Positions 11,999 to 62,800 of a DNA stretch of 64,000 bases are shown piece by piece (within the stretch, counting starts at the first letter, position 1; each line of letters begins with the position of its first letter). The notes beneath the pieces are model-generated. The model saw nothing but the letters and a program-made list of their open reading frames with translations. It made no database searches and was not told the DNA's origin. Made by a program: the position numbers and the translations under genes. The DNA lies in NCBI GenBank assembly GCA_017506865.1, contig JAFCMP010000129.1, positions 62,001 to 126,000 of the forward strand, given 5' to 3'. This stretch comes from Tribonema minus (lineage: Eukaryota > Sar > Xanthophyceae > Tribonematales > Tribonemataceae).

Positions 11999-14900
11999 AT
12001 GATGCTGCGGGCGACTTATGTAATAGCTGCGTTGTGCGGAGGCACGCTGGCTGCTGCGTACAATCCTTGCTCAGGCCTAGCAGGACAAGCAGCTGTGATG
12101 TGCTGTGGGAGGGAAGCGCACAGCATTGTCACAACAGCAGAGCAAGAAGCGCTGGAGCTGGCGAGCAGGTACAGCAGGGCTCGTCAGCATGTCAGATGTT
12201 GATGTCACACAATGCCTTGATCTGTGTTTGTAGTGAAGTCGTGGCTGGCGCCAGCGCTTGCTGGCGTCTGCCAAAGCAAGGTCACACATGAGCTCCACGT
12301 CTCGAACAATCTGACAGTAGGCGTGTTCAAATCAGACCACACGCAATGTCAGAGAGCAACAGAACACGCAACGGCACGGATACTTGCGTCTGACGCCTTG
12401 AGAGCCTCTCGCAATCTGTGGGAACTGAGGAACTGCGAAGAGCACCTGGGTTTCTTGAAGTGCTGACAAACAACTTGGGGCCCAGCAGTCCTCTTGCCGA
12501 CGAAGCTGTTGCGGCACATACCTCTATGTATAGACCGCCAAAAAATCCAAGCACGGCAGCTCTGAGCCCATTGTGCCACAGCAGGGGCAGCAGCTGATGG
12601 TTCATGAATGACGAAACTCGGGGGGGTGCGATGGGTTTCCACATCACAGCGCACAGACCACAAGTGCACGCTGCCCTCAGTTATCGTGGCCCTCGTGCAG
12701 AGCGCCAGCGTATGAGTCTCATCCGCAGACTGGGTTAGTTTGCGGTGATTCAGACGCGCTCACGAGCGTCACCTGCTGAGGCAGGAATTGCATTCAAGCG
12801 CGGCTCTGGACAGACGCCACGGCAGCGGCTGATGGTCAGGATATCCCCATGCCGAGACGCCGATACAACCTCGGTGCTTCACATATGCATGTACACATGC
12901 CCGCCCGCCTCGGCGCGCCGCCGCACACACCGGAAAGCGTCGCCGGCGGACCTCCTGTACACCAACATCGCGGAGACATGCGTGGAGCGCAAGCGCGCGC
13001 TCGCCGAGGTGCAGACGCCAGTGCTATCTTTTGGCGGCGCCTCACATGTGCGTGCGCACAATCCCGCCTATCAACTGCAAAGGCCACATCTCGTGTAACA
13101 GCCGCGCCGCCGCCGCCGCCGCCGCCGCGCAGGAAAGCGTCGCCGGCGGACCTCCTGTACATCAACATTACGGAGGCGTGCGCGGACATCGATACTGTTT
13201 CGGTGCTTGACATGTCATACATACCCCCCCCCCCCCCGCCGCCGCGCAGGAAAGCGTCGCCGGCGGACCTCCTGTACACCAACATCACGGAGGCGTGCGT
13301 GGAGCGCAAGCGCGCGCTCGCGGGGACGGACGCGTGCGCCGCCGTCAGACGCCAGTACCGCCACTCCGAGAAGTACTGCACGGGGCACCCGTACACGGAC
13401 CTGAGCTTCCTGCTGAGCGCGGGGATACTGCCGCCGCCGCCGCAGCCCCCCCGAGAGAAGATTGAGGTACGCAGAGGGCTAGAGAAGAAAATGAAGTACG
13501 CGGAGAGCTGCCGGCCCTGTAGCGCGCACGGTTTTTTGAGATTCAAAAAGTGCGCACTTTGTTCCCTCAAGTACTTTTTGCTGCTGATTTCCCGTGAAGT
13601 TTGTGCTGAGCACTGGGATTCACTGGGATTCTGCCTCTGCCACAAGGGCCTCCAGCGGGGTCCCAGGAAGCAAGTACGGCGGGTGTAGCTGGAAATGAGG
13701 TGTGGGGCGCATTTTGGTCGTTCTGCTGTTGAAGTACTTGCGAGCCCTCTTTCACATGAGACATGTCCGTGGAGCTGGACATGCAAGTGGGTACTATGCT
13801 GTGGTGTACTGCAGATACGCTGCTCAAAACAACACCACTTGCGTGCCGGCGCTTGAAGTGATTGTGCGGTAGCAGTTGGCACATGTTCAGTTGCTGTAAC
13901 AGCAGGCGCTTCAGGGTCCGCGTTGTTTCAAGGCACTTTGACGCCGGGGGCTGAGTTTGAGGGGCCCACTTTGCAGGACGCGATTGAATGTGACTGCCTC
14001 TGTAAACGTGCTGCACGGCCGTTGTGGTCTACACGTGGCAGAACGGCAGGGGCTGTTGCGCGTGACGCAGTCACCGGACGAAGCGGGCACAGCGTTGCAA
14101 CTACAAGGTTGGATTGGATTCTGTCGAGGGAGCTCAGGTTGCTTTCACACTCATCGCGAACGCAGCTGGCGTGCTTTCACAGAAGAAACCTGAGCTGCTG
14201 CACTAGCCTTGGCTACGGCGCCTGATCTCATGCCCCATCAGTGCCAGGCTAGTGCAGCACTCGTGTTGCTGCCAGCACGGCACCTTAACGCCAACAGAAA
14301 CGTGGCAAGGCCGCCCCAGTCACAGGCGCACGCGCGTGCGGCACCGCTCAACCCCCTTGTGCTCCCCTCGTGCGTACGGCGCAGGAGTGTCGCGCGAAGC
14401 GCTACCTGCTCTGGACGCGCAACACGCTGGACTTCTTCGCCGGGCACCAGCACAAGTGGTGAGCACCCTGCCGATTCTTGCATGCGTCTACGCGGTGAGG
14501 CTGATTGTCTGCATGCAGGCAAGGCCATCCTGCTGCGCACACGCACAACAAGCGAGCTAACCTCAATCCCGGAGCTCCTTCACCAGATATCAGCTCCAAG
14601 GGTGGCGTGCTGTACGCGTGACTCAAGGGGCGCACGCAGTTATTCTGCTGGTTGCAGCACGTCCTCAAGCTGAGCTGCGCGCAGTTTTTGCTAGTCACGT
14701 GCACAGCTGTTGAGCGCCGACACATCACATGGTTGAGCACTGACGCATCACGCGCGTGGTCCCCCCCCCCCCCCCGGCAGGTTCTCGCTGAGCTGCGCGC
14801 TGTGGGAGGCGCACCGCAGTTGAGCACTGACGCATTGCATGGTTGAGCACTGACGCATTGCCTGCACGCCGCTTCGGCAGGTTCTCGCTGAGCTGCGCGC

Positions 14901-17900
14901 TGTGGGAGGCGCACCGCCTGGGCCGCACGCTGGTGCTGGACAGCTTCACCGGCATCGACAAGTGAGTCGAGTCGCCAGTCGAGTCGTGTCGTAGAGCCCT
15001 GGGGGAGTTGAGCGCTGACACACATGAGTGGTTGAGCCCAGCCGCGTGCGCTGCGAGCTGCACTGCACTGCCTTGGTGTGGCTCGTGCTTTCTGTGTGCA
15101 TTGTGCGGAGGACCGTTTCGTGCCGTCATGGCAAGTGATGTCCCTGTGTCACTGTTCGGGGTGTGCTGCACTGATCAACGAGAACGCCACGGGTATATGC
15201 AGTAGCACAGCGGAGTCAACCCTGTACGTGCTACTTGGCTGACATTGCAAAACGGCGAAGATTGGTGTGGCGGCACCTTCCTGGCATGCCTTACCATCAC
15301 ATGTACCTATGTGTCTGCTAACAATTACATGGGGTGCTCCAAATTTTTAAGCTTGTATGGCACACCACATCACTGCGCATGTGCGCAACCCAATTAGCAG
15401 CAGATAACGCACCTTACAGCAGCGCTGGTTTCACCGCACCATCGACGTGCACAAGCTCATGAGAAGCAGATCAGTTTGCTACCTTGCAGCACTCCTCGTA
15501 TCGCCATGATGCCGCGATCCACTTGAATGAGCTAATGGTCCGCACCTTATTGCTTACGCCCTTGTACTTGTAGACTTGGTTTCATAAAGCCCTCAAGGGA
15601 GGCCAGGTGTCCTATGCAATTGGGAAGTTTACTCCTATGCAGTAGCCTAGTCCGCACTGCGCCCTAAGAGCTTGTGCTTGTGAAGCGCAAATGCACGTCA
15701 CCACACAAATACGCACGTAAAATGCCGGTGTGCCCACTTTGACAATCAGCGCCACATTGCACACGCGCATGTACGTATGGCAGGACCCACATTGGCGGCG
15801 AATACCACGCAGACGTGCCCTTCACGGCCTGGTACAACAGCAACGCCATGGCGGGCCTGCCCCAGGGGGGCCTGTTCTGGCACGAGTTCGTGCAGGGGTG
15901 CGGGGCGCCGGGCATCCTGCAAGAGGTGACTCTCACACTTCAAACCTTCATTTGCATTGCTCCAGGGTAGCTTTCAATTAGCTTTTTGTATGGACAGTAC
16001 ACCAACATTTGAGCTTAAATATTGCTTGCAGCTGCCTGTGTAGGAGTGCTGCGCAGCCGCCAAACAGATCCCAAAACACGCCCCTCTTTGCAATGTCCGA
16101 TCCGCAAACTCCGTAGGATGTTGAATTCTCCCCGGTGATCACCTGCTCGCGGCGGCAACTCGGCGCAGGCCATTCTGACTCTAGCCAACTTGAACATTTG
16201 TGCACTCGGTGGAACCGACGCGCGCTTTTTCCTGCGCAAGCACTACATCTGGCAGACTGAGTGCAGTTTCATGCATGGAATGCCCACTGACGATCTTGCC
16301 CGCTCGCGCTGACGCTGCGCCGCAGGGCAGCGGCGACGTGGCGGTGGTGCCCCCCACCGCGTCACACGCGGACTCTAACCCTAACCGTAACCCTAACCTT
16401 ACCATAACCTAAGCGAATCCCCACTGGCGCTCTCTCCTGCTCGCGCTGAGGCTGCACCGCAGGGCACCGGTGGTGCCCCACCGCGTCACACGCGGACCCT
16501 ACCCCCTAACCCTAATCCTAACCTAACCCTAACCCTAAGCGCAATGCCCCAATAGAGTGTTTCCGCTGCTTGCGCTGACGCTGCGCCGCAGGGCACCGGC
16601 GACGTGGCGGTGGTGCCGCCCTCCGCGTCGCACGCGGACATGCTCGCGCACGCGGGCGTGCCCCTGCTGGTGCGCGAGTGGGACGCGTCAGCGCTCAGGC
16701 GCAGCGCCACCACCACCGCCTCGCTCACCGACTCGAGCGGCCGGCCGGACATGCGGTGAGTAGAGTACTTGAAATTTTGTAATGGGGAGTATGCCGGTTT
16801 GTGCAGTACACACTCCAAGTACGGTTTACTTAGGAAGTACGTACTTTTGGGAAGCAGTATTCATATTCAAGGCAGTGCTCAGGCGGAGCGCCACAGCCAC
16901 CACCTCGCTCACCGACTCCAGTGGCCGACCCGACATGCAGTGAGTAATGTGTTTCTGCGAGCAGAGTACGTCTGTATGTGCTGAGGGACACATCTCAGGC
17001 ACGGTTTACCCTCAACTGTATGCTTTTATGAACACAGTATACTTCTACATACTCAGTATGTCTCAAGGCAGTGCTCAGGAAGAACATCACCACCACCTAC
17101 CGCCTCGCTCACTGACTCCAGCGGCCGGCCCGACGGTGAGTGGTACGGATTACTTCAGTATGTGCTGAAGTGCACGTATCAAGTACGATTTACTTCTTAA
17201 GTATGTACCTTTGGCAGTACAACTGGTATGTCTAAAGGCAGTGCTCAGGGGAAGCGTCACCACCACCATGCCGCCTTCGCTCACCGACTCCAGCGGCCGG
17301 CCGGACGTGCGGTGAGCCCTTGCAATGCGCACGGTTTGTGCGCCGCAGCTAAAACTGTTGAGCATGCACTCGGTCCGAGCAATGTGCTTGACCCGAGTTG
17401 AGTCACGATCACAACTCTGAGTGTCACTCTGTGTCCATTGCCAAGCTTTTCCACAGGGGGTCACGACCCCTTCATCGATGGCCCCCGCCTCTTGTCACAG
17501 ATGCGGTGCCAGGTGCGCAGTTCCTTCAAAACTCATTCATTCATTCATTCATGCAGTCACTCATTCATACATCTTCATTAATTCATTTACTCATTCATTC
17601 ATTCATTCATTCCGTAATTCATCCATTCATTCATTCGTCCATTCATTCATTCATTCATTCATTCATCCATCCATCATTTCACTCATCTCCCGCCGCAGGT
17701 ACGGGTACCAGGTGTGCCACAGGCCCGACGTGCCGAGCGCGCGCTGGCCCAAGGTCGTCAGCGAGCCGGGCGTGGACTACTCCATGCCAGAGGGTCTCAA
17801 GTGAGTGCAACTGAACTTTTGACTCTGGAAATCCAAACTGAGACCTAAGTTATGCAAGGGTCTCTAAAACATCCAACATCAGCCTTCAATAGTGCCCAAG

Positions 17901-20464
17901 GGGCTCAAGCGAGTTCAACCAAACCTAAATTTTACCTTTGACCCTTATCAAATTCGCGCCCTGATCTAAACCCTAGTTGTGACGTCATCACTGCACCATT
18001 ATCGCTGAACCTTTGATTGTGATCCAATCCCAAGCCCTGATTAAACCCTAGTTGTGACCTGTTCGCTGCACCATCTCACTGAACACCGCGTGCTGCAGAG
18101 AGGGCCCCGCGCTCTCGTGTCATTGCAAGTGCACGCAGCGTCAACGACGTGTTTGCTGCTTCCGAGCGCTGCGGAGGGAAAACTTCTTAGTGAGCTGATG
18201 TTGTAAAAACAGCTGGTGCCCACAGATGGTGTTTGCTCTGCTCAACTTCAAAAACGTCGTACTCATCCTGAACTGCACAGCATGCCAGTTCTAGGAGCGC
18301 AGCGAGCAGCTGTGTAAACAGCGCAACACAGGCAATGCTTGTCTGCCTCGGCGGCGCTGAACCTCCGCCCAAACGCCAACCCTCGCTAAGAGGCCTCTAC
18401 CTGTTTATCCAGTTCTGCGCGTGGCGCGCCCATGCGCGAACCTTCGCGGACAAACAGCGTGGCGCAGGCAATGTTGCTTGGTCATGCAGTGTTCTACCTA
18501 CTCAGGCGCTGATCCTCGCTTGAATTTCGCGCCTACATTGTTTAAATTCTGCCTGTATGAGGACTGAGTGTGCGGCACGACGCCCAACGTTTTTGCCGGC
18601 AAACTCAACAGCGTTGGACATGCTCGAATACAATCAAAACCCTCGCTCGGATGCCGCCCTGCGCTGCACAGTCCGCGGCCGTACGCGGACTGGCTGCATG
18701 ACATGGGTGACGCTCAGCAATCCAACAGCGCTCCATGCACTCCTTGACTGCCGACCTCAGCTTGTATGCTACCCTGCGCTGCTGCAACGCCACCGCTGTG
18801 CTGCCACAGATCCCGCCCGTACGCGGACCGGGCTTACAGCACGACATAAGGTGACAATCACTATTCAACAGCGCTCAACGCGCTCATTAGATGCTGATCT
18901 CAGGTTGGATGCCACCGTGTGCTCACCCTGTACTGCGCAGGTCCCGCCCATACGCGGACTGGGTGTACAGCACGACGCGCGCGATGCTTGACGACCTCAA
19001 GGCCGAGGGCGCGGCGCTTGGCGCGCAGGTCGTCTGCGTGCACGTGCGGCGCGGCGACATGGTCAGGGCGCCCGGCATGCGCGCCAGGTGCGCTTCATCA
19101 AATCATCAAAATTATGCACGTACTTGTTATTAATTCTCGCTCTGGGCGCAAAGAAGCCCAGATGTCAGTGAATGGTATCTAAGCTTGCTGTGCGAAATCT
19201 ACATGTCATGGTGACAATATGAAAGTGTCTCAGTGACAACCACGCATGTACTTTGGGACATGTGCGGTGTATTGATGGCAGGGGGAATGTATGTATGTGC
19301 AGCCGCGCGAAGGTCGTCTGCATGCACGTACATGGTCAGGGCGCCCGGCATGCGCGCCAGGTGCGCATGATCACAAACACGTACATCGAGATGCATTGTA
19401 CTTCAAGAAACAGGCGGTGTATTAATGCCAGGGGCCATGTATGTATGTGCAGCTGCGCGGGCTGTCTGCGTGCGCGTAGCGGCGCGGCGGCATGTTCAGG
19501 GCGCCTGGCATGAGAGCCAGGTGCGTACATGCGACATCCAAGTAGCCCTCCTCCAAAAGCTAATTTGGTGCGCGAATCAACAAGTTGGCGCGGCGGCAGC
19601 AATAACGAGAACCCCCACCCAGCAGACTGAAAGCACGGCAAGTACAGCGGCACCCAACACACATAGCATGGAGCAGACTGAGAGCGCCTGGCATCGTCAG
19701 TCGCGGCAATGTCCTCTGTCGGTGCTGCCACAGGAGCCATCTGCTCCGAGCTAAGTGTGTTGGGTGCCGCTGTCCTTGCGGTCCCTTCAGTCTGCTGGCT
19801 GGGGGTTCTCGTTATTGCTGCCGCCTCGGCAGCATCATCAATGGGAGCCATCTGATGCTGAGGCCGTGGTGTTGGCCCTGCCATCACAGCCCCTCTGCAG
19901 TACGGTTGTAGCGGATGCTGCGGCCGCAGCTGACGATCCCCGGCGCCCCCCCTTCACCTCCCTTGCCCCCCCCTCAGGTACCCCTCGCTCGACCGCGACA
20001 CCTTCGCCGAGGCCATCTCAATCTGCAAGCACGGCGCTTGGTGCTTGAGCACACACGCACACAGGTGTGATACCCGCAACCAACCCCTGCCCCCCCCCCT
20101 TCACCCCCCCCCCCTCCCCCCCCTTCCCCCCCTCAGGTACCCCTCGCTCGACCGCGATACCTCCGCCGAGGCCATCCTCGCGACGCTCGCGCCGCGCGTC
20201 CCGCAGGGCACCATCCTCTACATTGCGACCAACGAGCGCGACCCAGCGGCGTACTTCGCGCCGCTCGCGGCGCGCTACGCGGTGCGCGCGCTCGGCGACT
20301 ACGTCGACCTCGCCGCGCCGCCGGGGCGCCTGCTGCTGCCGTCGTCGCTCGCGCTCTTCGACTACGCGATGCTCACGCGCTGCCCCGCGGTCATTCCGAC
20401 GTTCGCGTCGGAGGCCGCGAGCGGCGGCTTCGAGGGCCTGTCGCTGTCGCCGCTCACCAAATGA
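11999..20464 (+). CDS. GDP-fucose protein O-fucosyltransferase-like glycosyltransferase, nine exons
   Basis: Exons 11999-12168, 13250-13466, 14385-14458, 14881-14961, 15784-15925, 16592-16755, 17699-17800, 18940-19087 and 20137-20464 join with consistent phases at all eight junctions, giving about 475 residues. Exon 1 gives a signal peptide or anchor (MMLRATYVIAALCGGTLAAA). Exons 3-4 give CRAKRYLLW and HRLGRTLVLDSF, the N-terminal nucleotide-sugar fold. Exon 8 has VVCVHVRRGDM, matching the HxRxxD/E motif of O-fucosyltransferases. Exon 9 has TILYIATNERD and the LFDYAMLTRC ... FASEA block near the C-terminus. It would move fucose from GDP-fucose to a protein or glycan in the ER or Golgi; the acceptor is unknown. 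Coding exons are strongly GC-rich. The introns contain partial copies of exons 2, 4, 6, 8 and 9 with splice sites, so alternative exon borders are possible. Confidence 0.82.
12860..13249 (+). repeat. Two partial copies of fucosyltransferase exon 2 (acceptor edge) in intron 1
   Basis: The true exon starts at 13250. The start of the exon (GAAAGCGTCGCCGGCGGACC and onward) is repeated at 13133-13187 with its own CGCAG acceptor, and at 12933-13010 where the acceptor AG is lost (CACCG). The upstream intron stretch (gatac...tcggtgctt) is duplicated with them, so the unit spans the intron-exon border. Confidence 0.85.
14656..14880 (+). repeat. Partial copies of fucosyltransferase exon 4 (acceptor edge) in intron 3
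   Basis: The first 37 nt of exon 4 (14881-14917) are repeated without change at 14781-14817, again after GGCAG. A decayed copy lies near 14656-14690. Between them is a GTTGAGCACTGACGCAT unit repeated three times or more. Confidence 0.85.
15552..15675 (-). mobile_element. Diverged 3'-tail copy of the non-LTR retrotransposon, in an intron
   Basis: On the minus strand it reads from AAGCTCTTAGGGCGCAG through CCTGGCCTCCCTTGAGGGCTT to CCAAGTCTACAAG, matching the tail of the 7029-9665 element with many substitutions. It lies in fucosyltransferase intron 4. Confidence 0.75.
16298..16591 (+). repeat. Two partial copies of fucosyltransferase exon 6 (acceptor edge), each followed by telomere-like repeats
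   Basis: The first part of exon 6 (true start 16592) is repeated at 16325-16372 and 16462-16498, each behind an accepting CGCAG. Both copies break after the same base run (CACGCGGA) and pass straight into CCCTAA-type repeats (16371-16411 and 16497-16541) before the next unit. Unit length is about 136 bp. Confidence 0.9.
16756..17312 (+). repeat. Three partial copies of fucosyltransferase exon 6 (donor edge) in intron 6
   Basis: The last 65-75 nt of exon 6 recur at about 16875-16939, 17067-17134 and 17236-17311. Each ends at its own donor: GTGAGT, GTGAGT and GTGAGC. The intron spacer (tacggtttac..., agtatg...) repeats with them, giving a unit of about 180 bp. Confidence 0.9.
17528..17690 (+). 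repeat. ATTC tetranucleotide microsatellite before an exon
   Basis: (ATTC)n with interruptions fills the end of intron 6 up to the CGCCGCAG acceptor at 17698. Confidence 0.95.
17958..18085 (+). repeat. Tandem duplication in intron 7
   Basis: AAACCCTAGTTGTGAC followed by a CTGCACCAT...CTGAAC block occurs twice, about 75-80 bp apart. Confidence 0.75.
18305..18939 (+). repeat. Partial copies of fucosyltransferase exon 8 (acceptor edge) in intron 7
   Basis: The start of exon 8 (true start 18940, TCCCGCCCATACGCGGACTG) recurs at 18671-18702 and 18810-18850 behind CACAG acceptors. Their leading intron parts (gccaccctg...tgctg) recur too. More decayed relatives of the spacer lie around 18310-18530. 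Confidence 0.8.
19124..19250 (-). repeat. Dispersed copy of the hairpin-bearing repeat
   Basis: Matches the 9731-10140 unit from TTATTAATTCTCGCTCTGGG through the CTACATGTCATG block to GACAACCACGC, with substitutions in the hairpin. It sits in intron 8. Confidence 0.75.
19304..19533 (+). repeat. Two partial copies of fucosyltransferase exon 8 (donor edge) in intron 8
   Basis: The end of exon 8 recurs at 19304-19371 (ending CGCGCCAG|GTGCGC) and at 19454-19531 (ending GAGCCAG|GTGCGT). The first copy lacks about 10 bp within the HVRRGD segment. The spacer 'cggtgtattgatg(c)cagggg' is also repeated. Confidence 0.85.
19978..20022 (+). repeat. Partial copy of fucosyltransferase exon 9 (acceptor edge)
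   Basis: The first 45 nt or so of exon 9 (true start 20137) recur after CCCCTCAG at 19970-19977 with a few substitutions, then diverge. Both copies follow long C-tracts. Confidence 0.85.
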
Positions 20465-22757
20465 CGGCGCGGCAGCGGCGGCTGTAATGGCTGTGACGAT
20501 GTTCCACTTGCGCGGCGGCGCACGGCAGGCGTGTGAGCGCGCACGCGGCGCTGCAGCAGCCGTTATGTGCCGCCCCCAGGGCCTCCTCCACTGCTGCACT
20601 TTGATGCACTGGGTGGGATGGCATCGGACCGCTTCTGGTTTTTGATCGAGTCTCCTGGACCACTGCAAGTTGAACACGTGCAAGCGTGGCGGGTGCATCA
20701 ACCCCCTGACGTTGTCCCCTTCTCACAAAGCGCTGGGTCCTTCTAGGCCCGTGCTACGCGTTACCCACACTCTCGTTCGCCAGCGGAGGCTGCGCTTTTG
20801 CGGCGAGACGATTCTTATGTTGGGGGTCTCGCGCGTCGGCTGCCAAGCCGGCAGGCCTTTCTGTGTATACGTGGTCCAGTGTCAGTGTGAGGCGAGTGGC
20901 AGTCGCACACCTGCCATCCTTGTTGAAGCAGTAAGATCTGTGTCACATGGCCGCCGCACCAACTGTGGCGGCACGCCTCGTGGCGACGAGCTGCTGCTTG
21001 CCGAGCCGCGCTTGGTGACTCGTTGACTCGGGTCTATTCTATGTCTGAGTGTCTCAATTACGTAGCAGCGCCTTGCTGCCCCCATGGGACGCGCCACTGC
21101 CACCCAGGGAGATGATGTTGTTTGACATTACTGTCAAAGTAGTGCGTTGCTGCCTAGTCCTTCAAGTTGTTTACTACAAACTAGAGTGTCCCTTGGTGTC
21201 TGTATGGCAGTATGGCAGTGAAGTGTGCACAGTGGCTCCGAGTCCGAGCAGTCCATGTCGCTGATCAGTTGTTTCGTTTCGGTTTCAGCCCGCCCTCGCC
21301 AATGCCGCAGGCCTCAGCCTCGTTTCGTATCCCTCGTTCCTTGTATGGACTGACGGCCACAAAACCGATCAGCATAATGGTAATGCAACGTTCGCAACCA
21401 AGCCAATGACCATTCCTCTGCGTTCTGCTGCGTTTGCTGCTGAACGACGTGCACACAAGTGCATGCAAGGGCCCCCACATCATTGGGAATTTCAACATGC
21501 TGTTCGTCCGTGCTGTTGTGTGTCACAGTGACGCACCGTGCAACACATACGCATGTGGTCAGGCCTCAACCCGGCGGGTCCTCTCCGCAGTCCAGCGGCC
21601 GAAACCATGGCCGTTCTTACAAATGACGCCCATCAGGCGAACTCAATGGTGTTGATGCACCTCTCACTCAGTGACTGATTCTCAAGTATAGCGCAAACGC
21701 GCTCAGCCAGCCCTAGCTTAGAGCTCTCATCCTCACCGTCTGCCGTATTGCATTGCGTGGTGCTCATAGCGGCACGCATGCCACGCCCACTGGCAGGGGG
21801 GGGAGGCCCGCTGGCAGGGGTGGGAGGCCCCCGGCTGGTGCAAGGGGAAGGGGGGGCGGGCCGCGTGGTGCACAGCTAGTAGACGGCGGAAGGGGGAGGG
21901 CAGCGCGCAGTGCTGGCGGCAGAGGTGCAGATGTGGCAGGCGGCAGAGGTGCAGCCGCAGCGCGGACTCAGTCTGGTAGCGCAAGTTCAGGCACTACCCG
22001 CTGCAATACAGCAGCAGGTGCAACCAAGGCACTGCGGCAGCTGCTGCTGCTGCTTTTTTTGTGCAGAAAGGGCACCGGGGTTTCCACCGCAACCGGCACA
22101 CGCAAGTACTGCCGCGCCAGCCTCGGCGCGCATCCTGTTGTGCACCACCGTGTCATGCCCCAGGGACTAGTGGATTTGACAGTCCAAACTCCTAGGGCAC
22201 AGCGCAGGCTAGGCTGCTGCGTTGACGCAAGCTTTTCGATTGCATAGGCAACCCGGCCTCCCTTGGGCCTTTATAAATACAAGTCCATACGTGCCACTAC
22301 TCACCAGCCGTACCACTAGCAGCAACGGCATTTCACACAGCAACACAGGAAGTGCAGGAGACAGTAAAGCACACCAATGTGTGAACAACACCCTTGGGTC
22401 GGCTGACAACATGCGCTGTGTGTTTCAGTTATGGTTGTTGAAAAGAAACAATATTGCATATTAAGATGATCAACATATGTCACTCCTACAGCGACCCTGT
22501 TCTTCACAAAAGCTCTAGCCCCCCACTGCATGCCTCCGAGTCGGCTGCCGCACTATCACCAACGCGTGCGTCAAAGTGCAGCACACACATCCATGCCTTC
22601 ACCTCAATTCGTAGGTAGTTAATCAGCAAATTTGTACGAAGTATATGCATGAGCAGTAAAATGGCGGACCGAGGAGACCGGCACATCATGAGTATCATGT
22701 CCGTTCCTCAGGCTGCTTTGCCGACATCTACTGTAGTGGCACCCAGATGCCTGCATA
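20465..22757. other. Convergent intergenic region, no confident gene
   Basis: Between the fucosyltransferase stop and the transporter stop. It includes the 3' regions of both. A G-rich stretch at 21790-21910 and an open frame (21753-22247, +) with low-complexity Gly/Ala/Arg sequence lead into a retrotransposon tail at 22181. That frame may be remnant mobile-element sequence. Nothing else is recognised. Confidence 0.45.
22181..22293 (+). mobile_element. 3'-tail copy of the non-LTR retrotransposon
   Basis: Plus-strand copy of the element end: CTCCTAGGGCACAGCGCAGG, the stop region, GCTGCTGCGTTGACGCAAGC, and the TTTATAAATACAAGTCCATAC terminus. It is nearly identical to the tail of the 7029-9665 element, so it is young. 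No clear target-site duplication was seen. Confidence 0.85.
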
Positions 22758-24010: not shown

Positions 24011-24180
24011 TGTAAGGACAGGTTCATGTGATGAGCACTCATTTGACGCATGCAAATGTGCCTATATGCTTGTGAAGTAGCTCGCCTGAGCCTGATGGTC
24101 TAAAAGACAGGCTCATGTGATCAGCACTTGTTCTACACATGCCAATATGCCAATGCTTTTGACACAGCTCACTAGAGCCG
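24011..24180 (+). repeat. Tandem duplication of about 95 bp in a transporter intron
   Basis: ACAGGTTCATGTGATGAGCA...CGCATGCAAATGTGCC recurs as ACAGGCTCATGTGATCAGCA...ACATGCCAATATGCC. Confidence 0.75.
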
Positions 24181-45563: not shown

Positions 45564-45643
45564 GGCATTCTGCAGCACGACATCCACTCTGGATCTGGCC
45601 ACGGTCTCAGAGAGGCCATGAAAAACGGCCGAGTGCCCACGTG

Positions 45644-48600
45644 TCATGCCTGCCCTTCTGCTCGTAGGATTGTGTTTCTTGCAACCGTGGACCCAACGTT
45701 CAGGGCCAGTACTAGGATGGGCAGCAGGAGCAGAAGCGGGACTGGAATGCCCGAAAGCTGCTCCAGCAGGCCTTTGACATCCTGCGACAGACAACAGTTT
45801 GAGCCAACTAGTTGGTCAGCCCCTGCCAACACTGCACTAGCTGATACATGTCTACATGCGCTGAAACCGTGCCCAAGACAGCGCAGCAGGTGTTGGTGGT
45901 GGCAGTTCGCGCTCGCTGGTGCGTGGTGTGCACCTTAATTACGGAGCGCGATTTGTTGTGTTTCTCGATGCGCTTTGACATCAGTTTGAAAGCAGCTGCA
46001 TGTACCGGCGCGTTTGCCGGCACTTTGCAGCACACATCGTTAAAGGAAGCCTGGATCGGATAGCTATGATGCTGCTTTGACACAATCAGCGAACATGTGT
46101 GATGGTGTGGTGTGCATTGCGAGAGTATGACATTCGTCATACTATGGCCAAGGACACAACTGTGATACTGTTTACTTGAAAGCAGCAAGCCTCGATAGAA
46201 TAATTGCTTAACATCATGCAAGTTTGTCAGCAACACGATGAGCGCACGCTATGCAATGTCATCAGCACCACGTGCTCACACAACATTGTTTCACAACCGG
46301 TGCCAGTACCGAGAAAGCTAGAGCATGAGGTCACAGCATACATAAACTAAAGTTTAAACTTTGATGCATGGTACAAGCCCCAAGACTCGCATTGCAGTGC
46401 AGGAAGCGATGGCAGTTGCCTGCGGAATCCCAGTGTAGCAACACTCAGCAAACTGCTGATGCAGCGCACCACTCTGATGTAGCAGCATGCTGACACCAAG
46501 CACTCCTGGCAACGCGGCAAACATGATTGCATGACGGCAACCGGAAGCATCAGCTGGCGCGTGCGCAGCACACGCACCGTGCCAGCGGCGTCCGCCACGA
46601 ACGGCAGCAGCGGAAGCCCCACGATCGCCGCCGCCGCCGTTGCGGTCGCCAGGAAGATGGGAGATCCGAAGAACAGCGCCGACGGCCACAGCGTGGACAG
46701 CGCCTCGCTGAGCGATACCTCTTCGAAGCCAGCGCTCAGGCACGCGTCAGCGAGCAGCCGCTGCTGCCGCAGCGACACCACGGCCCATCTGCGCAGAGGA
46801 TCGCGCGGTTTGCATCCGTGGAAAAAGCCCATGAATAAATTAATTACTTCTACAAAGAAATGCCCACAACTGATCAATATCATGTAGCACCAAGATCTGG
46901 GAAAAAAAGTTTGCGAGGGAATGCGGCTGGGGTCATATGGAGCTATGGATGGAACACGGAGAGTGCGTTGTTGATGTTTTGATGCGGGGAAAATGGGGAC
47001 ACCACGGCCCACCGGCGCAGAGGATGGACCGCGCCGTTTGCATCCGTGGGACTTCGTGAGCGCATGCTGCTGGGGTCAGGGTCATGTGGAAGTGTGCATG
47101 GAACGCCCGTATTTACGCACGGAGACTGAGTTGTCAATGTTAGGATGCGGGGGAAGGGGGGGGGTGTAGTGGCCTATACTGACCAGTACACGTCAAGTGC
47201 CTCGCTGCAACAATGCTTTATGGTAAGGCCGCGCTCAGTATCGAAAGTGAGTTGCCACTGCAGCTGCGGTTCTCTTACGGCTTGCCTACACACAAGAGCA
47301 CAGCAACAGTACCATCACAATTGACCTCCAGCATGGGGATTGCAATCTGCACGGAATGTTCATAGCACTCACACATCTATTGCAACAATGTGATGGCCAG
47401 CAAATTGCCGCCTGCCTCCCAGCTCATGTGAGCACATAAATATTGACTTAGCCGGTTTTAATCATCACCACTTTTGACAGTTTTGTCATCACTCGAGACG
47501 GTCTTGCATTCGTGAAGTTCACTGTAACCTAGCCTGGCTCTGTATGTGACTCTAAGACCAAAAGCCTTCCGCAGCAGCAGAGCAAGTGGAGTAGCAGCAG
47601 CAGTGACGGTATGCATTGAAAATGGCATGCATGCATGCAGCGCCGTCACAGCCAGAGCCGGAACTGGCAGCAGTAACACAAAACAAATCCCGCGTTAACC
47701 CTAACCCTAACCCTAATCCTAACCCTAAATCCCGCGTTAAGGCGACACCTGTACGCCAGCAACACGTATCTGCTCTTTGTAGCAAAAGACGCCACACACC
47801 AACTCACACGCTATTTTGACGCGGCACGACCGTCAGGATCGATGTGACGAGCTGCTGGTAGACGGCGTCATAGTCACCGCCGTCGCCGCCGAGGACTGCG
47901 CACTGTTTCAGCTCAAAGTCCTGCGGACAGAAAAGAAGTTGCAACAGGTCAGGGAGTGGCAACATTAGAAAGGTCCATTGATGTTGCTTTTTGATGAGCT
48001 TGACGATCTGAAATTGATCCAGAATTGCATGCGCGGAGGGTGCCTAGTCGCACTGCGCACTGGTGATTTTCAAAGCTGCAGAGCCAATTAACAGTAAATG
48101 GCCAGAGTGCACTTATCATGATGACCGAGGCACAGTACACATCACTGGTGTGCACCGCTCAGGTCAGACCATCACAAACAAAGAGACATCGAAAACTTGT
48201 ACAGCATCCCTACTACTGATTCATGCGCATCTCTCGCCCGTGTGTGTGTTGAGTCTGATGCTGTGCCCCACAAGCAAGATTATGGGTTGGTTGGCGTGAT
48301 CCGCTGACGGCGTACACTGAAATCTGCAGGGAGCGGCTCCGTGTGAAGTTGCCACACCAACAGATAAAGCAAAAGCGCCGCCGCCACCACCAGCTGCAAG
48401 CAAAAGGCGTACGTGGCGGCCTTGCCTCGAGCAGTGAGGATCATGCTTGAAATTCTGGTACTAGCGGATCAGTATGGTAGGTGGGATCCCCGTGATTGTA
48501 GGTGCCGGCTTATTGCTCTGCTCACCTTTTGCAAGTAGAGATAGCCGCTTCCGATCCTTGCCAGCTGTGCCATCCCCACTGCTCGTCCACCTTTCTCCTT

Positions 48601-50664: not shown

Positions 50665-53600
50665 ATGGAGCCTGATGCATTGGAATGGAGAGTACCGACA
50701 ACGGAGCAGCTGGCAGAGGTAGCGGATGTGGAATCGGATGCGGACCGAATAGCTGCATTAGCAAAAGCGCTGGGAGTGGTATATCCAGGCAAGTGAACAC
50801 CGCGTGCAAACGCGGTGACCCTCATCGATTGGTGCACACATGGTGTCACTATAGGTACACCGATGATGCGAGCGACGCAGCATAGAAATACGCACGCGGG
50901 AAGCACCCAGTACGCATGTGCAACCGTCCGTGAGTATACTTGAAGCATCATTCAGACTATTGCAGGGGTACGTAACGTATGGTTTGCCTCTACATAAGAT
51001 GAAGCTACTCCAGCCTTCCTATGGCGGTATTAGACGACTGGACACACTGCATGACGTGCGCCGTGCAAGGTGCCGCCTGCCACGCCGCGTGCATGCAGCC
51101 ATAGCCGCCGCATTGCAACCATGGCAAGTTGTGCGTGGCCCTGCACGCTCTGCATGCGCGCTTCAATGCTTGTCGTATGGCGCTGCAGCGAGGCTCAGCC
51201 GTGGGGCACAGCTTCTGCAGATATGCTGTTTGTACCAGTGGATCTTGTACTCGTACTTCACCGCGCTTTGGTGCGCAGCAGTATGCCTGCCACCAGCATC
51301 ACGCACTAGATCAATAGACCAAACAAAAATTACCCATGTTCTGTATGGCGGAGCCTGCTGCCCGCCGAAGGGCACATCAGCGCGCCATGCACTGAGGTGA
51401 AGGATCAAATTCGGCTCACGAGCCCTCATGAGCCCTCTAGACATCTGCCAACGCCTTAATCGCACGGTACGCAGCCCAGCGGAGGACACAGGACACGGCG
51501 CAATGCGTCAGTGACGCACTCTCCATCCACGCACCCACATTGGTGCCCTCCTCTTCTCCGTTGCACGATCCACTTCAGCAGGTGTGGGCGGTCTGCGCAG
51601 TTCGTGCAGAGCGGGTGGCACAAGACTTGCGTGCCGCTGCACTGTCGGTAGGCAGCCACCAGCGGCAGCTAACAGCACTGCTGTGCGCTTTGTACCTCGG
51701 CGTTTCCCTGCACGACCCCGCTCCCTGCTGCGATCAAGTCAGTGCCGTCGCGTTAGAATCAGCTGATGGCGTCCTGCTGCTGCTTCTGCTACCTGTCATG
51801 TGTGCAGCCATTTGCGTCTATGCTGAGCACTGGTGTGCGCCTGCATGGTGCCCCGGGACCTCCAATGACATACTTCGAAATAACTGATCGCTGCTATCGT
51901 GGCATGGCTCTGCAACGTGCTGCCCTCTGCCGCAGGCGCCGACGGGCGCACCGCCATACACGTGGAGTTCCTGTTCACGAACATGGCGTATGCGGTGGAG
52001 GCGGGCTTCTCCAGCCAGCAAACGCACGAGTTCTTGAGGTAACCCCGCTGCTGCTGCTCTGTTTCATCCCCGAGAATCTGTTTGCCGAGAAGGCAAAGCT
52101 TCTGACATGACATCACGTGCTGGTGTGCTGCTGGCAGTCCTGTTGGGATCTGAATGTTGGCTGTGGCAGTGTTTTTGGCAGGGGCTCGTGTGGGAGCTGC
52201 AGTTGCTTGTGTGAAGAAGTTGTACAGGCATTGAGCTTTGCATAGGGGCCTCATCTGTGTCACAAGTGTGTGCTGCGCATTAAAAGCTGAGGCCGCAGTC
52301 ATGAGCCAAGCGCCAATTTGGATGGTGTTAAAGATGATAAACACCTCAATAAATGTAAACAACACTACCATCTTTTAGCATAAAAAGCAACAACCAACAA
52401 GAACTAGACCTGCTGGGACACTCGTCCTCTGTGTCGCTACTGGCTCTGGGCTGTCGCCGCATGATTCAAATTGCAGCAGCCGCGTTACGCAGAGATGCTG
52501 GAATGCGCACACGCTCCAGGCCTTGACCAGCAAATATATGGAGGCGCATTGAGCACTGGTGCATCGACGGCAATGACTCAATGGCCTAACAGCACAGTGA
52601 CGCGTCCACTCGTAGCCTTAGAGAATAATTCACCGCATGCTCAAGGAGCTTCAAGACATGCATTTCCAGCCTCTTTGAACCCTGGCCCTAACCCTTTGGT
52701 GGTAATGGGGGGGGGGGCGCACAGAGTGTGCGTGCAGCAGCAGGCTGAGAGTTTAGGACTGAAGCAAGGGTTAGCGTCAGTGCTAGGGCTGACTTGAAAG
52801 TTATCTGAGGCGGCGAGGCAGTAGAGCATCAACGGCTGTGGTCACTGTACGCCCAGGGGTGGAGGGTTAGGGGTAAACAGGCGTCCAACCCCAATTATTC
52901 TTTGAAGGTGACAATGCGCTGCTTTCACGCCGTTTCACATTCGCGGTCATTGCACGCCCAGGGGTAGGGTTAGGGGTGAAATAACGACCAACCCTGATTA
53001 TTTATGAACGCGACAATGCGCTCACACGCTGTTTCGCATTCCTCGCCCCCGCGCCCGCGCAGCATGACGGAGAACGTTCTTCAGGGAAGCATCCTGGCGC
53101 CGCTCTCCGAGGGCGCCCCGTGCCTCTCCCAGCACGACAGCTTTGCGCTGTTCAAGCGGGAGGTGCTCTCGCGGAGCACCGACGCGGCGGGCGGCCCCGG
53201 CGCCTTCGAGATGTCTGCCATTGCACAGGTGCGGAGCACACTTTTTTGCGCATTGAAGAACTGCGCTGCGCTGCGCGCGGCCTTCGGCACCTTTGAGACG
53301 TTGCGCCATTGCACAGGTACGGACCGTGTTATTTGCGCATTGCAGACTGCGACTGCTTTTCGCGAAGGGCCTTGACCGTGCCGCCTCCAATACCCCCGAG
53401 CGCGTTCCTTGTGCCTTGAAGAAGAAGCACTGCGCTGTGTCTCGCGGGCGTGTCTCGGTTCGAGCCAGTTAGTTGACCCGACTGTGTCAGCGCAAGTATA
53501 TACATAGCGGTGTGGTCACGCGCATCGTACGCAGCCGGGATGAGTACGAACGAGAATTCCCTAGAGTAGGTGCAAATAGCCTCTACGGTCGTTGTAGCCG

Positions 53601-56871: not shown

Positions 56872-59800
56872 TTACATTGTAGTATAAGCACGCACTCTGT
56901 CTTTGGGCGTTGACGCTGGCGACCACACAGCTGGCAGGGGCGTGTGCGTGCCGTCCTCCTGCGTCAGCAGGCACAGCGCAGAGGCATGAGCGGGGGGGGA
57001 GAATGGGTCACTGTCAGATGATGGGGGCGGGGGGGGCAAGGCCCTTTGCCAACAGTAAGTGCAGATGGTATCAATCCCCCTGCCCGCCTTCACAACTGGT
57101 TCACTCAGCGCTGCCTCTACGATACGTCGCCAGTGCGCATAGCAACCATCACAGCGGTGGACCTCTTGACTACTAGGCAGGCGCGTGGGGACACCCCGAG
57201 ACGGGGGCATAAGCCTACAAGTGTGCGCCCAGGTGAGGTCAATGCAGTGCATATCGGTACCTGTATGCCACAAGTATAGCATAGAAGTGCAATGCTCAGC
57301 ACATGTCTGGCAGAGAATGATGACTTACAGCGCCGCTGAGCGTTGCCTCTTCGTCGATCTGCCGCTGCTCCTCGAACGCTTTCCGGAAGCTGTCCGTGTT
57401 GTGGAAGCTGCAGGGGCGGAGCAGCAGGGACGCGATCGGTCAGGCGCATGCACGGGACCCGTCCGGACCCGCAGCGTGACGCAGGAAATGATATTGGCTA
57501 CGCAACACAGTTTGTCGTTGAAGCTCGCTCACGCCGAACCGCTGCTACTAGGTGGTCAGCAACAACATCGTGTCAACAAGGACAGGTGATGGAGCAGCAT
57601 GCACAAGTTGAGGTTGTGGGCCCGGCTGAGGCTGGAAATGTGCATGACGCACATGCAACACATTTGCACTCGTGCCCACAGTGACCACTTCTTGCAGCAC
57701 GTCATCATGGCACCTGGGGCATCCGTGGGAACCGGACACGTGCACACAGTCAACGTCTGATACAAGAACCTAGGAACAATTCCTAACCCTTGTTTCAACA
57801 TAATTATTATGAGTTGACGCTAACCCTGAATCAACTCCACGCCTGGCCCTCCACAATAGAGCCGTTGCTGGGTTAAGGTTAGGGTTAGGGTTAGAGTCAA
57901 GGCCAGTTACCTGAGCATCAGGTTCTGGTCCAACATTCTGCCGACTTCGGCTGCCTGGGTCTTGAAGACGCCACGCCGTTCATCGTCGTTGAGGCCATAG
58001 AACAACATGCGCTCGTGCTTCTTGAGTACCTGTGCATACAGTGATGAACGCGAAGCTGAGGTTGAGTGCGGGAATGGCGGTTTGTGTGGGTCTGCAACTA
58101 CAGTAGCATTCCGTCCTTCCTTTAGTCAATGATGGAACTTGGGGGCTTGGGCTGCCAGATTTAAGCCTGCTGATGTACTTTGCAGAGTCGTTGTGTATCG
58201 TGTGCTGCACTGTCTCAACTAGTAACATGAGGAGAGGATTACCAGCAAAAGCCAAGTATGCTTGACATCACTGCGACGTGCATCTTTTGTGTTTGTGCAT
58301 CACACACTACTATCGTATCTGCTATCCTTCAAGTTGACGTCATTGAGGGTCTCGCCCGTTGCACAGCAACGCACTCATTCCCAGCCTCCCGCCAGTCATT
58401 AAGTGCCACAGCAGTCAACACTTGCTTGCCTGGCGTGAAAATGCGTTTCATCCAAACTATGCACACAGCAATATTGCCCTGTGAAATGATCGTCTAAACT
58501 GTAAGTGAAATGATTCGTCTAAACTGTAAGTCATGCACGGCAATGGCCCTGTGAAATGATCATCTTCTTCATCACATTAAATTAGAATGCAGCCATCAAG
58601 GCCTGCACGGCGATCTGGGTGCGGCCCACAACGGCATCAGCACCCCAAGAAATGGCAGCTAGCAGCCTGAGTCATGAGCGTTAAGTGTCTTGACTCAGAG
58701 CTCCGAGTCACTTGCCTGGTTGCGCAGCGTGCTGCTGATGTTGACCTCAAAGCGGCCGCCAGGCAGGATGAAGTCCGTGACAATGGCGTCGAAGACATCG
58801 AACTGCGTGTACACAAACAGAGAGTGCGCACACCGGAATTAGGTTTACGTTGCCAGTGAAAATGTTGTGTGCAGCAGGTGCTGCTGCATTCCATGCACGG
58901 GGGGGGGGAGGAGCGGGAGGGTTGGGGGGTATGACACCCTCTGGCGAATACTGCAGTGGCAAGAGGGCTGCCTGCAACAGGGCCGCGGCCACGCAGTGAC
59001 GAGGTGCTGCTGCAACCTCCTAACCCTAACCCTACCCTAACCCTAATGCTAATCCTAACCCTACCCAGACCCTAACCCTCACCCTGCAACAGCTGCAGCT
59101 GCACGACTACCCGTGACCGCAAATGCATCATGATGCAGTGAATGCATTCCACTACATTTTGCAACCTGCTACAGTACTAGCAGTGAGCAGAAGTTTGCTG
59201 ACGTCCGCTTGAAAGAAGCGAAAACAAGTACTTATAAACTCAAATAGAAGTATGCCACTCTGCTTCACTTCAAGTGACTCGCCTGCTTGCCCATGTCCGC
59301 GTACGCATCGCGCGCGTACACCCTACTAGCCCCAAGCTTAACCCGATCCCTGAGCTGCATTCCACCCTACTGTGGTAGCTTTCAAGTAGTGAGTAGAAGC
59401 ACTTTGGGGTGACCTGTATGCCGCTCTATGTCACTTGCTTGCTGACGTCCGCTCAAAAGTAGTGTGAAGAAGTACTTCGACTTCAGTGTACCACGCTACT
59501 TCACTTCAAGTGACTCACCTGCTTGCCCATGTCCACGTACGCGTCGGACGCGCACACTCTACTACAGTAGAAGCACTTCGGGATGACCTATATACCACTC
59601 TACTTCACTTCAAGTGACGTGCCTGCTTGGCCATGTCCGCGTACGCGTCGGACGCGTACTGCACGACCGCCGCCAGGAACGCGAAGCTCTCAAAGCACAG
59701 CGCCTGCTGCACGTAGCGCCCGTACGCCTCCGTGAGCGTGGGGCTGTTGAGCAGCTGCAGCGTTGTGGCGTACTTCTGCCGCGCCTGCGCCCACTTGCTG

Positions 59801-62800
59801 AGCTCGCGCCCTGCGCAAACAGGATTGCAGCGGACAGAGAGGGGGTCGCAGAGGCTGGCCTGAGGCAAGGGCCACGGGAGCTCAGGTAAGGGCCGGGGGG
59901 GGGGGGGGGGGGGGGTGGACCTACCGCAAAGGTGAGGGCGGTGGGGGTGAGGGCATGGTGGTGGCTTGGGGGGGGGGGCAGTACATACATCAGGCTCAGA
60001 AGGAGCGGTACCGAATACACTTGTGGGGATCAGGCCCGCTATGCCAGAGGCGTGCGCACGTGTGCGTATGTGTGAAAATACCTGTGTAAGATTTGTGCAT
60101 GTTTTATTTTTTTTGAAACGACCTGTGTAAGGTTCATTGACAACATCCGCAGGATCCACCCCCTTGCGCGCCTGCAAGGAACGCCAGGGCCAGGGCCAGG
60201 GCAGCAGATAGGGTTGGCACACGGGCAGGTATGCCGACCAGGCCCTATCCTAACCCTAACCCCAGTCATGACTGCATTGCTGATGTTTATTAAGGCGCCA
60301 CACTCGCTGTGATCGTGCGATCAATACCTGGCGAATGCAACTCAGGCCCTTGAAGGAATGCTTTGTATCAAAAGTGGGTACGTGTGGGTCCTAGCACTGT
60401 CAGCATGTCAGTATTCTAGCTACACATGAGAGCATGTAGATACGTTTCAAGTACTTCCGTCAAACTTCAGGTGCCTTGATCATGGCAAAAGGCGCACCTT
60501 GACCGTCTGTAGTGCCGCCGCCGCAGGGCAGAACGGCGTAGCGTCGTGAGCCGAAGCATGCGCAGCCGAGTAGGGACCCCCAAAAACCCCTAGAGTTCAG
60601 CGCGCCGTTCGCCCAGAACCTCCGGGAGAAGACGAATATCTCGGCCTGCACAACGGCGGAGGCGAATACATGTTGTATTTATCAGGCAGTGCTCAACCGA
60701 GAGCTGTAGTATGTATGCACGGCCCTGGTGGTTGCAACCCTGGACAGCTGCTGTCGGACAGTGTTGCAGCAGGCCAACCGTTTACAGCAATTGCATGCTG
60801 CCGCAGGGCGTCACATGATTGCACTACTAGCAGATGCGGGAGCGTGAAAACTACGCTTTAGGGTCTAGACTAGGCTAGAGCCCGCTGGGACGGTCAGAGG
60901 CAGTGCACATGTTGTCATGTCACTGGGCGGTGTGATGCAACACCTGAATACTTGCCCTGCTTTGTGCGCGTCATCGTGCTTCGGCCAGCGTACGGTTCAG
61001 TGATTGACACAAACTTTTCAATCGCATAAGGCAACCCGGCCTCCCTTGGGCCTTTATATATAAATAAATACGAGTCCATAGGTACATGTAGTTTTTATTG
61101 ATGGTCGCTCAGGGCTCAACTAAACAAGCCAGACTGCCACATCATGCGCGCTGAGCACTGCTCTGTTGCTCACAGCCCACTGGTAGGCGTCCCGCTATGA
61201 AGCGAGGAGCGTCACCAGTGCAGGTGCCCCCGTGCTGCCCCGACGCACATTCTCTAGCTACCGTAGCGCAGTCAGCAACGATATGTACCGTCTACGCCAT
61301 GCCAGCATTTGCTTTAAACGCGCTCATCCTCTGCATGCATGCTCAACACACGGAAACCGAACTTCGAAAGAATCAAACTTCAACTTGTGCACGCATCACT
61401 GCGACGTCGCGCTCATCCACTGGCACAGGCACGCCACCGTGAGCTTTACCAAGACCAAACTTCAGCATTTAACTTCAACTTGTGCACAGAGCGCGCGTCT
61501 CTCGCCCACTGGTACAGGCACGCCGTCGTGAATAGCACTAGTGAACGCCGAACTTCAAGTGTTGAACTTCACATTGTGCACTGATTGCAACATCGCTCTC
61601 ACCCACTGGTACAGGCACGCCGTGGTGATGAGAACCGTGGGCCACGCGTTGGAGCTCATGATGCCGTGATCCATTAGCGCCAGGATGATCCAGTACGGTA
61701 TGAAGCAGCTGCGCATAGACGACGGGACGACGGCGGAGGCAGACACGGCTCGAGGTGCTCAAGTGGCGCTGAAGTTGCACATGCGATCAGCAAGGTTGAA
61801 GTTGAAAATCGAGGAGGCGGTGCCAGGCAGCGCGAGTCAGGGCGAGAGCAGTCAGTGTGAGAGTGTGTGCGGCTGGTGTGTCCCTTTCTGCAGTTGCAAC
61901 GCCCGTTTCTGCTGCACAGACGGGCCCGCAGACGCGCGTCGTCCGCTTGAGGGCCTGCGTCAGGGCTTGAAGAACTTCAATTTGCTTGTGTATTGTTATT
62001 ATCCTGTGCTGCCGCCTCGTGTGGTGCTGGCGCCTGATGTCAACAATTGAAATCAGTGGAGGGTGGGGGTGGGGAGGTGCTACCTGGCATAAGGCTACCC
62101 GGAACCAACGCTGGCTGGTGCCTGTCCGCTGCCGTTTAATTGAGACAACGGGCAGGACTGCAACATGTGCAGAGTCCCACGTAATACTTGATTCGGTCCT
62201 GCATGCATCACAACATGGCAAATGCAAGCTCCTGAGGTGCTGGTTCAACACTCAGCAGCCTAGCTCTTCAAGAGTACCTTCGAGTTGAACTAGCATAGTT
62301 TCGGCGCATGCGATCTGCACCAGGAGCACTTGATCTGGTTCCCCTCCCTGTCGTAGCCACTTTATGTAGAGCGCCGTACGTTTGAGGCCAGCTTCCTGTA
62401 ACCCCAACCATATCCCTAACCTTGACCCTCAAAGCTAGCCTGCCAGCTAGTTCTGCTGCAGCTCTGTGCTGCCTAGTCTGACCGGTCAATGCTGAGCAAG
62501 AAGCTTTGCACGCACAGTTGCCTTTCCCGGGCTCTACACAATGCCACGACACTCTGTCAAGCTGTTCCCTTCAGCTGAAGAGCCATACAGACAGACATAT
62601 ATACATACACACATACATACACAAATACATGCACACACACATACATATCCACACACAGCATCACACATACACGCCCCCCCTCACATGTACAGCGCCGTGT
62701 ACGTGCGCGTCAGCTCCACCCCGAGCCCGATCCTGTCGTCGATGCGGTGCATCATCCTCGCCTGCGCAAACATACATGCACACATACACACATACAACTT

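What the first reader, a model, noticed from the sequence alone, without database searches (positions are those of the whole stretch)
12860..62773. Introns built from tandem copies of exon edges, with splice sites, in several unrelated genes
At exons of the fucosyltransferase, RGS, CLAMP and membrane-protein genes, one end of the exon plus its splice site is repeated in the adjoining intron. Acceptor-edge copies are always upstream and donor-edge copies always downstream, on both strands. Copies range from identical to strongly decayed, so the process is recurrent. Direct observation: copy positions and splice motifs. Inference: tandem duplication across exon-intron borders is a main mode of intron growth here, and creates decoy or alternative splice sites. 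The result resembles the proposed intron gain by tandem duplication of AGGT-containing segments, but acting on existing borders.
Basis: partly seen in the sequence, partly recalled or inferred. Interest (0 to 1): 0.88.

Follow-up and report, generated by a model that had tools for sequence, protein, structure and literature searches.

The report
Introns grown from copied exon edges
In a yellow-green alga, many introns hold rows of tandem copies of the neighbouring exon's edge, splice site included, so genes carry decoy splice sites that splicing seems to ignore, which bears on how introns grow and how true splice sites are chosen.

Summary
In 314 kb (window plus 25 ten-kb samples) local direct repeats far outnumber inverted ones (sample 288 v 4, window 36 v 0). 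Of 126 repeat arrays 53 cross an edge of a strong predicted exon, 1 lies inside an exon. Copies lie mostly upstream of acceptors and downstream of donors, as any exon-sparing tandem duplication must. 42 of 47 acceptor and 42 of 53 donor copies keep the splice dinucleotide. A relative's transcript-derived protein fits the innermost site at all 7 duplicated edges of one gene; the T. minus database protein holds six copy-derived stretches. Arrays tested are private to their locus, so not introners. Identities fit neutral decay. Age-matched, edges show no excess over intron 50-150 bp away; simulation needs no hotspot if introns grew from about 300 bp. Unexpected: the copied exon piece is 77 nt or less at 50 of 52 edges; random breakpoints put 36-53% above that. 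I read this as iterated tandem duplication filtered by exon definition. No T. minus RNA was available.

The parts
11999..20461 (+). fucosyltransferase-like gene, 9 exons: 11999-12168, 13250-13466, 14385-14458, 14881-14961, 15784-15925, 16592-16755, 17699-17800, 18941-19087, 20137-20461
   Evidence: tblastn of the relative's transcript-derived protein P0030, splice contexts, gene finder (which fuses the copy at 13133 with exon 2 and does not list exon 1); Pfam Glyco_transf_11 E 4.4e-4, below cut-off
12905..13186 (+). two upstream copies of the acceptor edge of exon 13250-13466; decoy site at 13133 identical to the true site over 28 nt
14701..14817 (+). upstream copy of the acceptor edge of exon 14881-14961
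16278..16470 (+). upstream copies of the acceptor edge of exon 16592-16755 (decoys at 16326 and 16463)
16873..17316 (+). three downstream copies of the donor edge of exon 16592-16755
   Evidence: one decoy (16941) recovered
18657..18845 (+). upstream copies of the acceptor edge of exon 18941-19087
19305..19525 (+). two downstream copies of the donor edge of exon 18941-19087 (decoy at 19361)
19946..20017 (+). upstream copy of the acceptor edge of exon 20137-20461 (decoy at 19978)
46998..47049 (-). upstream (gene sense) copy of the acceptor edge of predicted exon 46578-46788
53269..53364 (+). downstream copy of the donor edge of predicted exon 53063-53228 (decoy near 53317)
61357..61538 (-). downstream copies of the donor edge of predicted exon 61603-61708 (score 10.7, so not among the strong exons counted)
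62607..62772 (-). downstream copy of the donor edge of the predicted exon ending near 62888 (start 63197)

Best explanation
These are local tandem duplications (period median 157 bp for the nearest copy at an edge, 214 bp over all pairs) that recur at high rate in introns of Tribonema minus. A duplication that crosses an exon edge leaves the coding exon intact: for an acceptor the extra copy stays upstream, for a donor downstream, and it is removed with the intron. Repeated rounds build arrays of exon-edge copies, lengthen the intron and leave rows of decoy splice sites that then decay neutrally (shown: structure, orientation, decay pattern; inferred: rate and rounds). The transcript keeps the innermost acceptor-donor pair, i.e. 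the shortest exon, although decoys can be identical in sequence; this is what exon definition would do (supported for one gene through a relative's protein; inferred otherwise). The copied exon piece stays at about 77 nt or less, probably because a longer piece would itself be recognised as an exon and be selected against (inferred). The DNA-level cause is most likely break repair by fill-in and end joining (inferred, not tested).
For: Direct v inverted local repeats 288 v 4 in the sample. 53 edge arrays and 1 exon-internal of 126. Partner on the intron side in 98 of 103 sample alignments. Exonic half 87.7% v intronic half 74.0% identical, n=101, about a 1:2 divergence ratio, as expected if the copy drifts against a conserved exon; the neutral simulation gave 86.3 v 78.6%, n=146. 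Dinucleotides kept in 84 of 100 copies, at about the rate of neighbouring exonic bases. Period mod 3 = 109:100:115 for remainders 0, 1, 2: no reading-frame bias. Four array regions occur at full length only at their own locus. Innermost site matched at 7 of 7 duplicated edges, of 16 internal edges, in one gene. Simulation with introns growing from about 300 bp and exonic part capped at 70 gives edge:intronic 1.65, 38% of edges spanned, exonic part median 44, against 53:30, 25-34% and 46 observed.
Against: The transcript protein is from a relative that may lack these decoys, and it is one isoform (i3). The T. minus database protein P0029 does include copies as exons. Simulated repeat coverage of introns (0.70) is above the observed 0.25-0.44. 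In fixed-intron nulls the edge excess is 4-6 fold, so a border preference is not excluded. Edges of the very strongest exons (score 20 or more) are spanned less often at acceptors (5/35; donors 10/34). Exons are mostly de novo predictions, and copies are sometimes called as exons. Selection as the cause of the cap is untested: the cap is already there in the youngest copies (15 of 16 edges with a copy at least 88% identical), which a mutational cause would also give.
Confidence: 0.68

Rival explanations
1. Border-targeted mutation: breaks or template switching tied to transcription or splicing occur at exon edges, with one breakpoint 30-60 nt inside the exon, so edges are true duplication hotspots.
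For: Repeat ends facing the exon pile up at +40 to +59 (21 acceptor ends, 17 donor ends, against 0-9 and 2-14 per 20-bp bin in the intron). Repeat coverage falls away from acceptors (25% at the edge, 12% at 450-600 bp) while a random null rises (15% to 25%). Edge:intronic arrays 53:30 v 0.30-0.47 in fixed-intron nulls.
Against: Age-matched rate at edges equals that of intron points 50-150 bp away (an imperfect control because the same arrays cover them); growth from short introns reproduces the ratio without a hotspot; 30 intron-only and 42 far arrays show the process also runs away from edges.
Confidence: 0.2
2. The copies are functional: alternative or regulatory splice sites kept by selection, as the database protein suggests by including them as exons.
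For: P0029 contains six copy-derived stretches in five insertions; two decoys (13133 and 19978) lie 117 and 159 nt from the true site in open frame; dinucleotides mostly intact.
Against: No 3n bias of periods; copies decay about as expected without constraint; the relative's protein lacks all of them; P0029 also has a different first exon, and P0001 carries an extra segment that the relative's P0002 lacks, so these gene models look unreliable.
Confidence: 0.08
3. Assembly or haplotype artefact.
For: One assembly only; no reads available.
Against: Copies mostly differ from each other by several to tens of percent, flanks are unique, arrays recur in 250 kb chosen without regard to content, and the four array regions queried are found once in 158 Mb.
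Confidence: 0.03

Closest known systems
Edge-spanning tandem duplication in potato RdRp (PMC4974935; passages and section 5 read)
   Same: A tandem duplication crosses an intron-exon border and carries the 3' splice site and the start of the exon
   Different: One event whose copy was exonised as a new intron/exon pair with RNA support; here arrays of many copies at many edges, on donor sides too, apparently skipped
Intron gain by tandem duplication of AGGT-containing exonic segments (Rogers 1989; Hellsten 2011; both only as described in PMC4974935)
   Same: Tandem duplication supplies splice sites without changing the peptide
   Different: There an exonic segment is duplicated and becomes a new intron; here existing introns lengthen and each copy carries one existing border
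Introner elements (recalled; no paper read)
   Same: Repeated sequence makes intron
   Different: Introners are dispersed families; the four array regions tested are locus-private
Small tandem duplications from break repair, CST-Pol alpha fill-in (PMC8355091; start of abstract and passages read)
   Same: Adjacent direct duplications formed at breaks
   Different: Described there as short (<100 bp) insertions and tested in mammalian cells; mechanism not tested here
Decoy splice-site model for exonic motifs, including Ectocarpus (PMC4476162; passages read)
   Same: Posits that decoy sites burden exon recognition; a brown alga with large introns shows extensive exon-end motifs
   Different: Here decoys are literal copies of the real exon ends

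Membership tests
Tandem genomic duplication crossing exon borders | local direct copies including a splice site and exon end | tested here: met
AGGT intron gain | duplicated exonic AGGT segment forms both ends of a new intron | tested here: not met
   in the three loci read base by base, donor-side copies derive from the upstream exon and acceptor-side copies from the downstream exon, each with existing intron; not scanned genome-wide
Introner elements | similar sequence in introns of unrelated genes | tested here: not met
   four array regions match at full length only themselves; the RGS query has 5 partial hits of 79 bases at 76-81%; the first query (20000-20500, coding exon plus C-rich tract) has 20 partial hits, taken as paralogues and C-rich matches. 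The tool scores best candidates only and skips common words
Tandem exon duplication / mutually exclusive exons | whole exon with both splice sites copied | tested here: not met
   exonic part 77 nt or less at 50 of 52 edges; predicted exon median 130 bp; 4 of 56 edges with longer extents were left out
Exon definition | nearest acceptor-donor pair across the exon is used | tested here: inconclusive
   7 of 7 edges in one gene, through a relative's protein
DSB-repair small tandem duplications | junction microhomology and fill-in signature | not tested
   old arrays blur junctions; 10 of 43 pairs at 88% identity or more are adjacent or overlapping (gap 10 bp or less), partly because non-neighbouring copies are paired too
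Functional alternative splice sites | RNA use of the copies | not testable with these tools
   no T. minus RNA held

The most novel reading that the evidence does not exclude
In this lineage introns are to a large extent self-made from their own exon ends, and splicing itself sets which duplications survive: a copy is invisible only while its exon piece is shorter than the smallest exon the cell can recognise, so the genome holds tens of thousands of natural decoy sites, some identical to real ones, that measure the exon-length threshold of exon definition.
Probability: 0.35. Interest if true: 0.88.

Novelty: new variant of a known kind. Interest (0 to 1): 0.77.

Why it matters
Where intron sequence comes from, and how splicing ignores matching decoys, are long-standing questions. 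Here the source of much intron sequence is visible, copies of graded age sit beside their template, and decoys that match the true site base for base occur naturally, so position rules can be tested without engineering. It also warns that gene models of this genome may contain false mini-exons.

Tried and rejected
Edge hotspot from raw rates: a 'young copy' filter on whole-alignment identity (85% or more, 50 bp or more) gave 11% at edges v 2-6% in introns; set aside as biased because the exon half is conserved, and replaced by intron-side age matching, which shows no excess over the adjoining intron. Random-breakpoint nulls were simulated in eleven runs, eight without and three with an exonic cap; the eight put 36-53% of exonic parts above 77 nt, the data 2 of 52. 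Codon-only exon calling drifted to few GC-rich exons and was replaced by a splice-aware model. A cryptic acceptor at the exonic breakpoint was looked for by eye and not seen consistently. Intron phase: phase 0 leads (48 of 101 acceptors) but was not tested against arrays. Haplotype comparison of copy number was not possible: the searches showed no second copy of these arrays. Papers: nine answered searches; none of the titles and abstract starts listed describes this pattern; only open-licence papers are held. PMC3488318 (passages) added nothing further.

Rows dropped: repeats with low-complexity score over 0.045 or over 35% simple repeat, which removed the 19946/20107 pair from the counts; the donor array at 16689-17316 was counted as intron-only because its alignment ends just past the edge; 4 of 56 edges with exonic extent longer than the exon were left out of the 52. 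One of the two exceptions above 77 nt (L011 5133) may be a miscalled donor, since a GTGACG site lies at about 5064. Some exon coordinates given to searches were 1 nt off those in the parts list.
Full report
WHAT THE WINDOW IS. The window is G000:C129:62001-126000, in a 158-Mb, 554-contig genome. A dioxygenase ORF matches a Tribonema minus protein at 100% (P0001), so this is the xanthophyte alga T. minus. Transcript-derived proteins of a close relative (source EukProt; species not shown) are also in the database (P0002, P0030).

IS IT THERE. Yes. Self-comparison finds near-tandem direct repeats at each place named, on both strands (sequences). It also finds repeats away from called exon edges (9726, 36123, 37423, 45445), so edges are not the only sites. 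To test it outside the window I fetched 25 ten-kb stretches chosen without regard to content (20 on C13, 3 on C490, 2 on C513) and trained a splice-aware gene finder on all 314 kb (donor mostly CAG|GTGMGT with 12% GC at the first two intron bases, acceptor GCAG|G). With simple repeats removed, local (1 kb) direct repeats outnumber inverted ones 288 to 4 in the sample and 36 to 0 in the window; coverage per 10-kb stretch runs from 0 to 41%. Edges of strong exons (score 12 or more) are spanned in the sample at 17 of 80 acceptors and 26 of 79 donors, in the window at 5 of 21 and 5 of 19; at score 20 or more the sample gives 5 of 35 and 10 of 34; exon-interior points 251 of 3057. Arrays: 53 edge, 30 intron-only within 600 bp, 42 further away, 1 exon-internal. 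Scaling the 44 sample edge arrays to 158 Mb gives roughly 28,000, a crude figure from three contigs.

WHAT IT LOOKS LIKE. In L019 an exon of 142 bp has, in the upstream intron stretch printed, five full copies of its first ~48 bp, each behind a GCAG acceptor, plus parts of others, and in the downstream intron six copies of its last ~57 bp, four of them with an intact GT donor; in L010 a donor edge is followed by four copies at about 119-bp spacing, 91-94% identical. Four array regions find themselves and nothing of comparable length elsewhere in the genome. In three genes with homology support, recognisable repeats cover 25% (fucosyltransferase-like), 44% (extended-synaptotagmin-like; SMP and C2 domains) and 41% (kinesin; only the motor exons are supported) of intron length.

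WHICH SITES ARE USED. P0030, from a relative's transcriptome, maps to nine exons of the fucosyltransferase-like gene and contains none of the copies; at all 7 edges with copies (of 16 internal edges) it corresponds to the innermost site. One decoy acceptor (13133) is identical to the true one (13250) over 28 nt. The T. minus database protein P0029 (596 aa against 474) contains six stretches, in five insertions, that derive from copies; I take these for gene-model errors but cannot show it. P0030 is another species and one isoform. The RGS-like exon is a case to watch: its predicted donor is a GC site while the first copy has a consensus GTGAGT; reading on into that copy meets a stop codon.

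DO THE COPIES MATTER TO THE CELL. The exonic half of edge-copy alignments is 87.7% identical, the intronic half 74.0% (n=101; exonic higher in 88). A ratio of divergence near 1:2 is what a freely drifting copy beside a conserved exon gives; my neutral simulation gave 86.3 and 78.6%. AG is kept in 42 of 47 and GT/GC in 42 of 53 copies, about the level of adjacent exonic bases, so decoys are neither clearly protected nor visibly purged. Periods show no 3n bias (109:100:115).

ARE EDGES SPECIAL. Sidedness follows from geometry. Whole-alignment identity filters suggest an edge excess, but they favour edges because the exon is conserved. Age-matched on intron sequence (40 bp at 75% or more), edges (12/101, 17/98) equal points 50-150 bp into the intron (50/475, 68/453), while points at 300-500 bp are lower (49/896, 97/864); the near points often lie in the same arrays, so this control is weak. 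Against the plain null, fixed-intron simulations predict fewer edge arrays than seen (ratio 0.30-0.47 v 53:30) and coverage rising away from the edge, where the data fall. Simulations in which introns grow from about 300 bp give 1.65 with and 2.48 without the cap; starting from 600 bp 0.33 and 0.75, from 150 bp 4.21 and 7.14. So border targeting is possible but not required.

THE EXONIC CAP. The copied exon piece has median 46 nt and is 77 nt or less at 50 of 52 edges; of 40 edges with exon at least 120 bp and period at least 100 bp, 2 exceed it; among 19 edges in homology-supported genes, 1 does. All eight simulation runs without a cap give 36-53% above 77. Internal exons in supported genes run 66-236 nt, n=18, so the copied pieces end about where real exons begin. 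I infer that pieces long enough to be taken for an exon are selected against; a mutational cause is not excluded, since young copies show the same cap (15 of 16 edges).

HOW IT PROBABLY WORKS. Recurrent local tandem duplication, probably by break repair, inserts copies in introns and over edges; exon-internal ones are lost; edge-spanning ones survive because splicing joins the innermost pair; arrays expand and decay. Shown: structure, privacy of the four tested, decay pattern, sidedness, cap. Inferred: repair pathway, exon definition as filter, rate.

COMPARISON. A potato gene has a single duplication over an intron-exon border whose copy became a new exon (PMC4974935, passages and section 5). 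The AGGT model makes a new intron from an exonic segment; introners are dispersed (recalled). Small tandem duplications from break repair are known (PMC8355091, passages). I found no report of arrays of exon edges as a source of intron sequence among the listings (open-licence papers only).

LIMITS. Exons are largely predicted; the sample comes from three contigs; simulation settings are mine; there is one assembly and no T. minus RNA.

Noticed in passing
whole sample and window, e.g. 16375-16538, 47696-47728, 59019-59085: Short interstitial TTAGGG-type repeats are scattered (9-mers 50-130 times over dinucleotide expectation), densest near exons and in repeats; possibly telomerase action at breaks.
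   Followed up: partly
introns in many sampled loci, e.g. 59260-59320, L010:5585-5635: A degenerate motif ACTTCAAGT / GTTGAAGTT is up to 49 times over expectation, 3 per kb in repeats near exons v 0.95 outside, often within 50 bp after donors; some copies could form short hairpins.
   Followed up: partly
59623 (-): The RGS-like exon appears to have a GC donor while its downstream copies carry GTGAGT and GCGAGT; about 12% of predicted donors are GC.
   Followed up: no
46542-50217 (-): Database protein P0001 joins the dioxygenase ORF to residues encoded near 46.6 kb; the relative's transcript-derived P0002 ends with the dioxygenase.
   Followed up: partly
7107-9740 (-): 877-aa open frame that looks by eye like a reverse-transcriptase element (not searched), next to a 96/119-bp tandem array at 9726-10140.
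   Followed up: no
strong exons; L025: Phase-0 introns lead (48 of 101 acceptors); all nine exons used for the synaptotagmin-like gene begin in phase 0.
   Followed up: no
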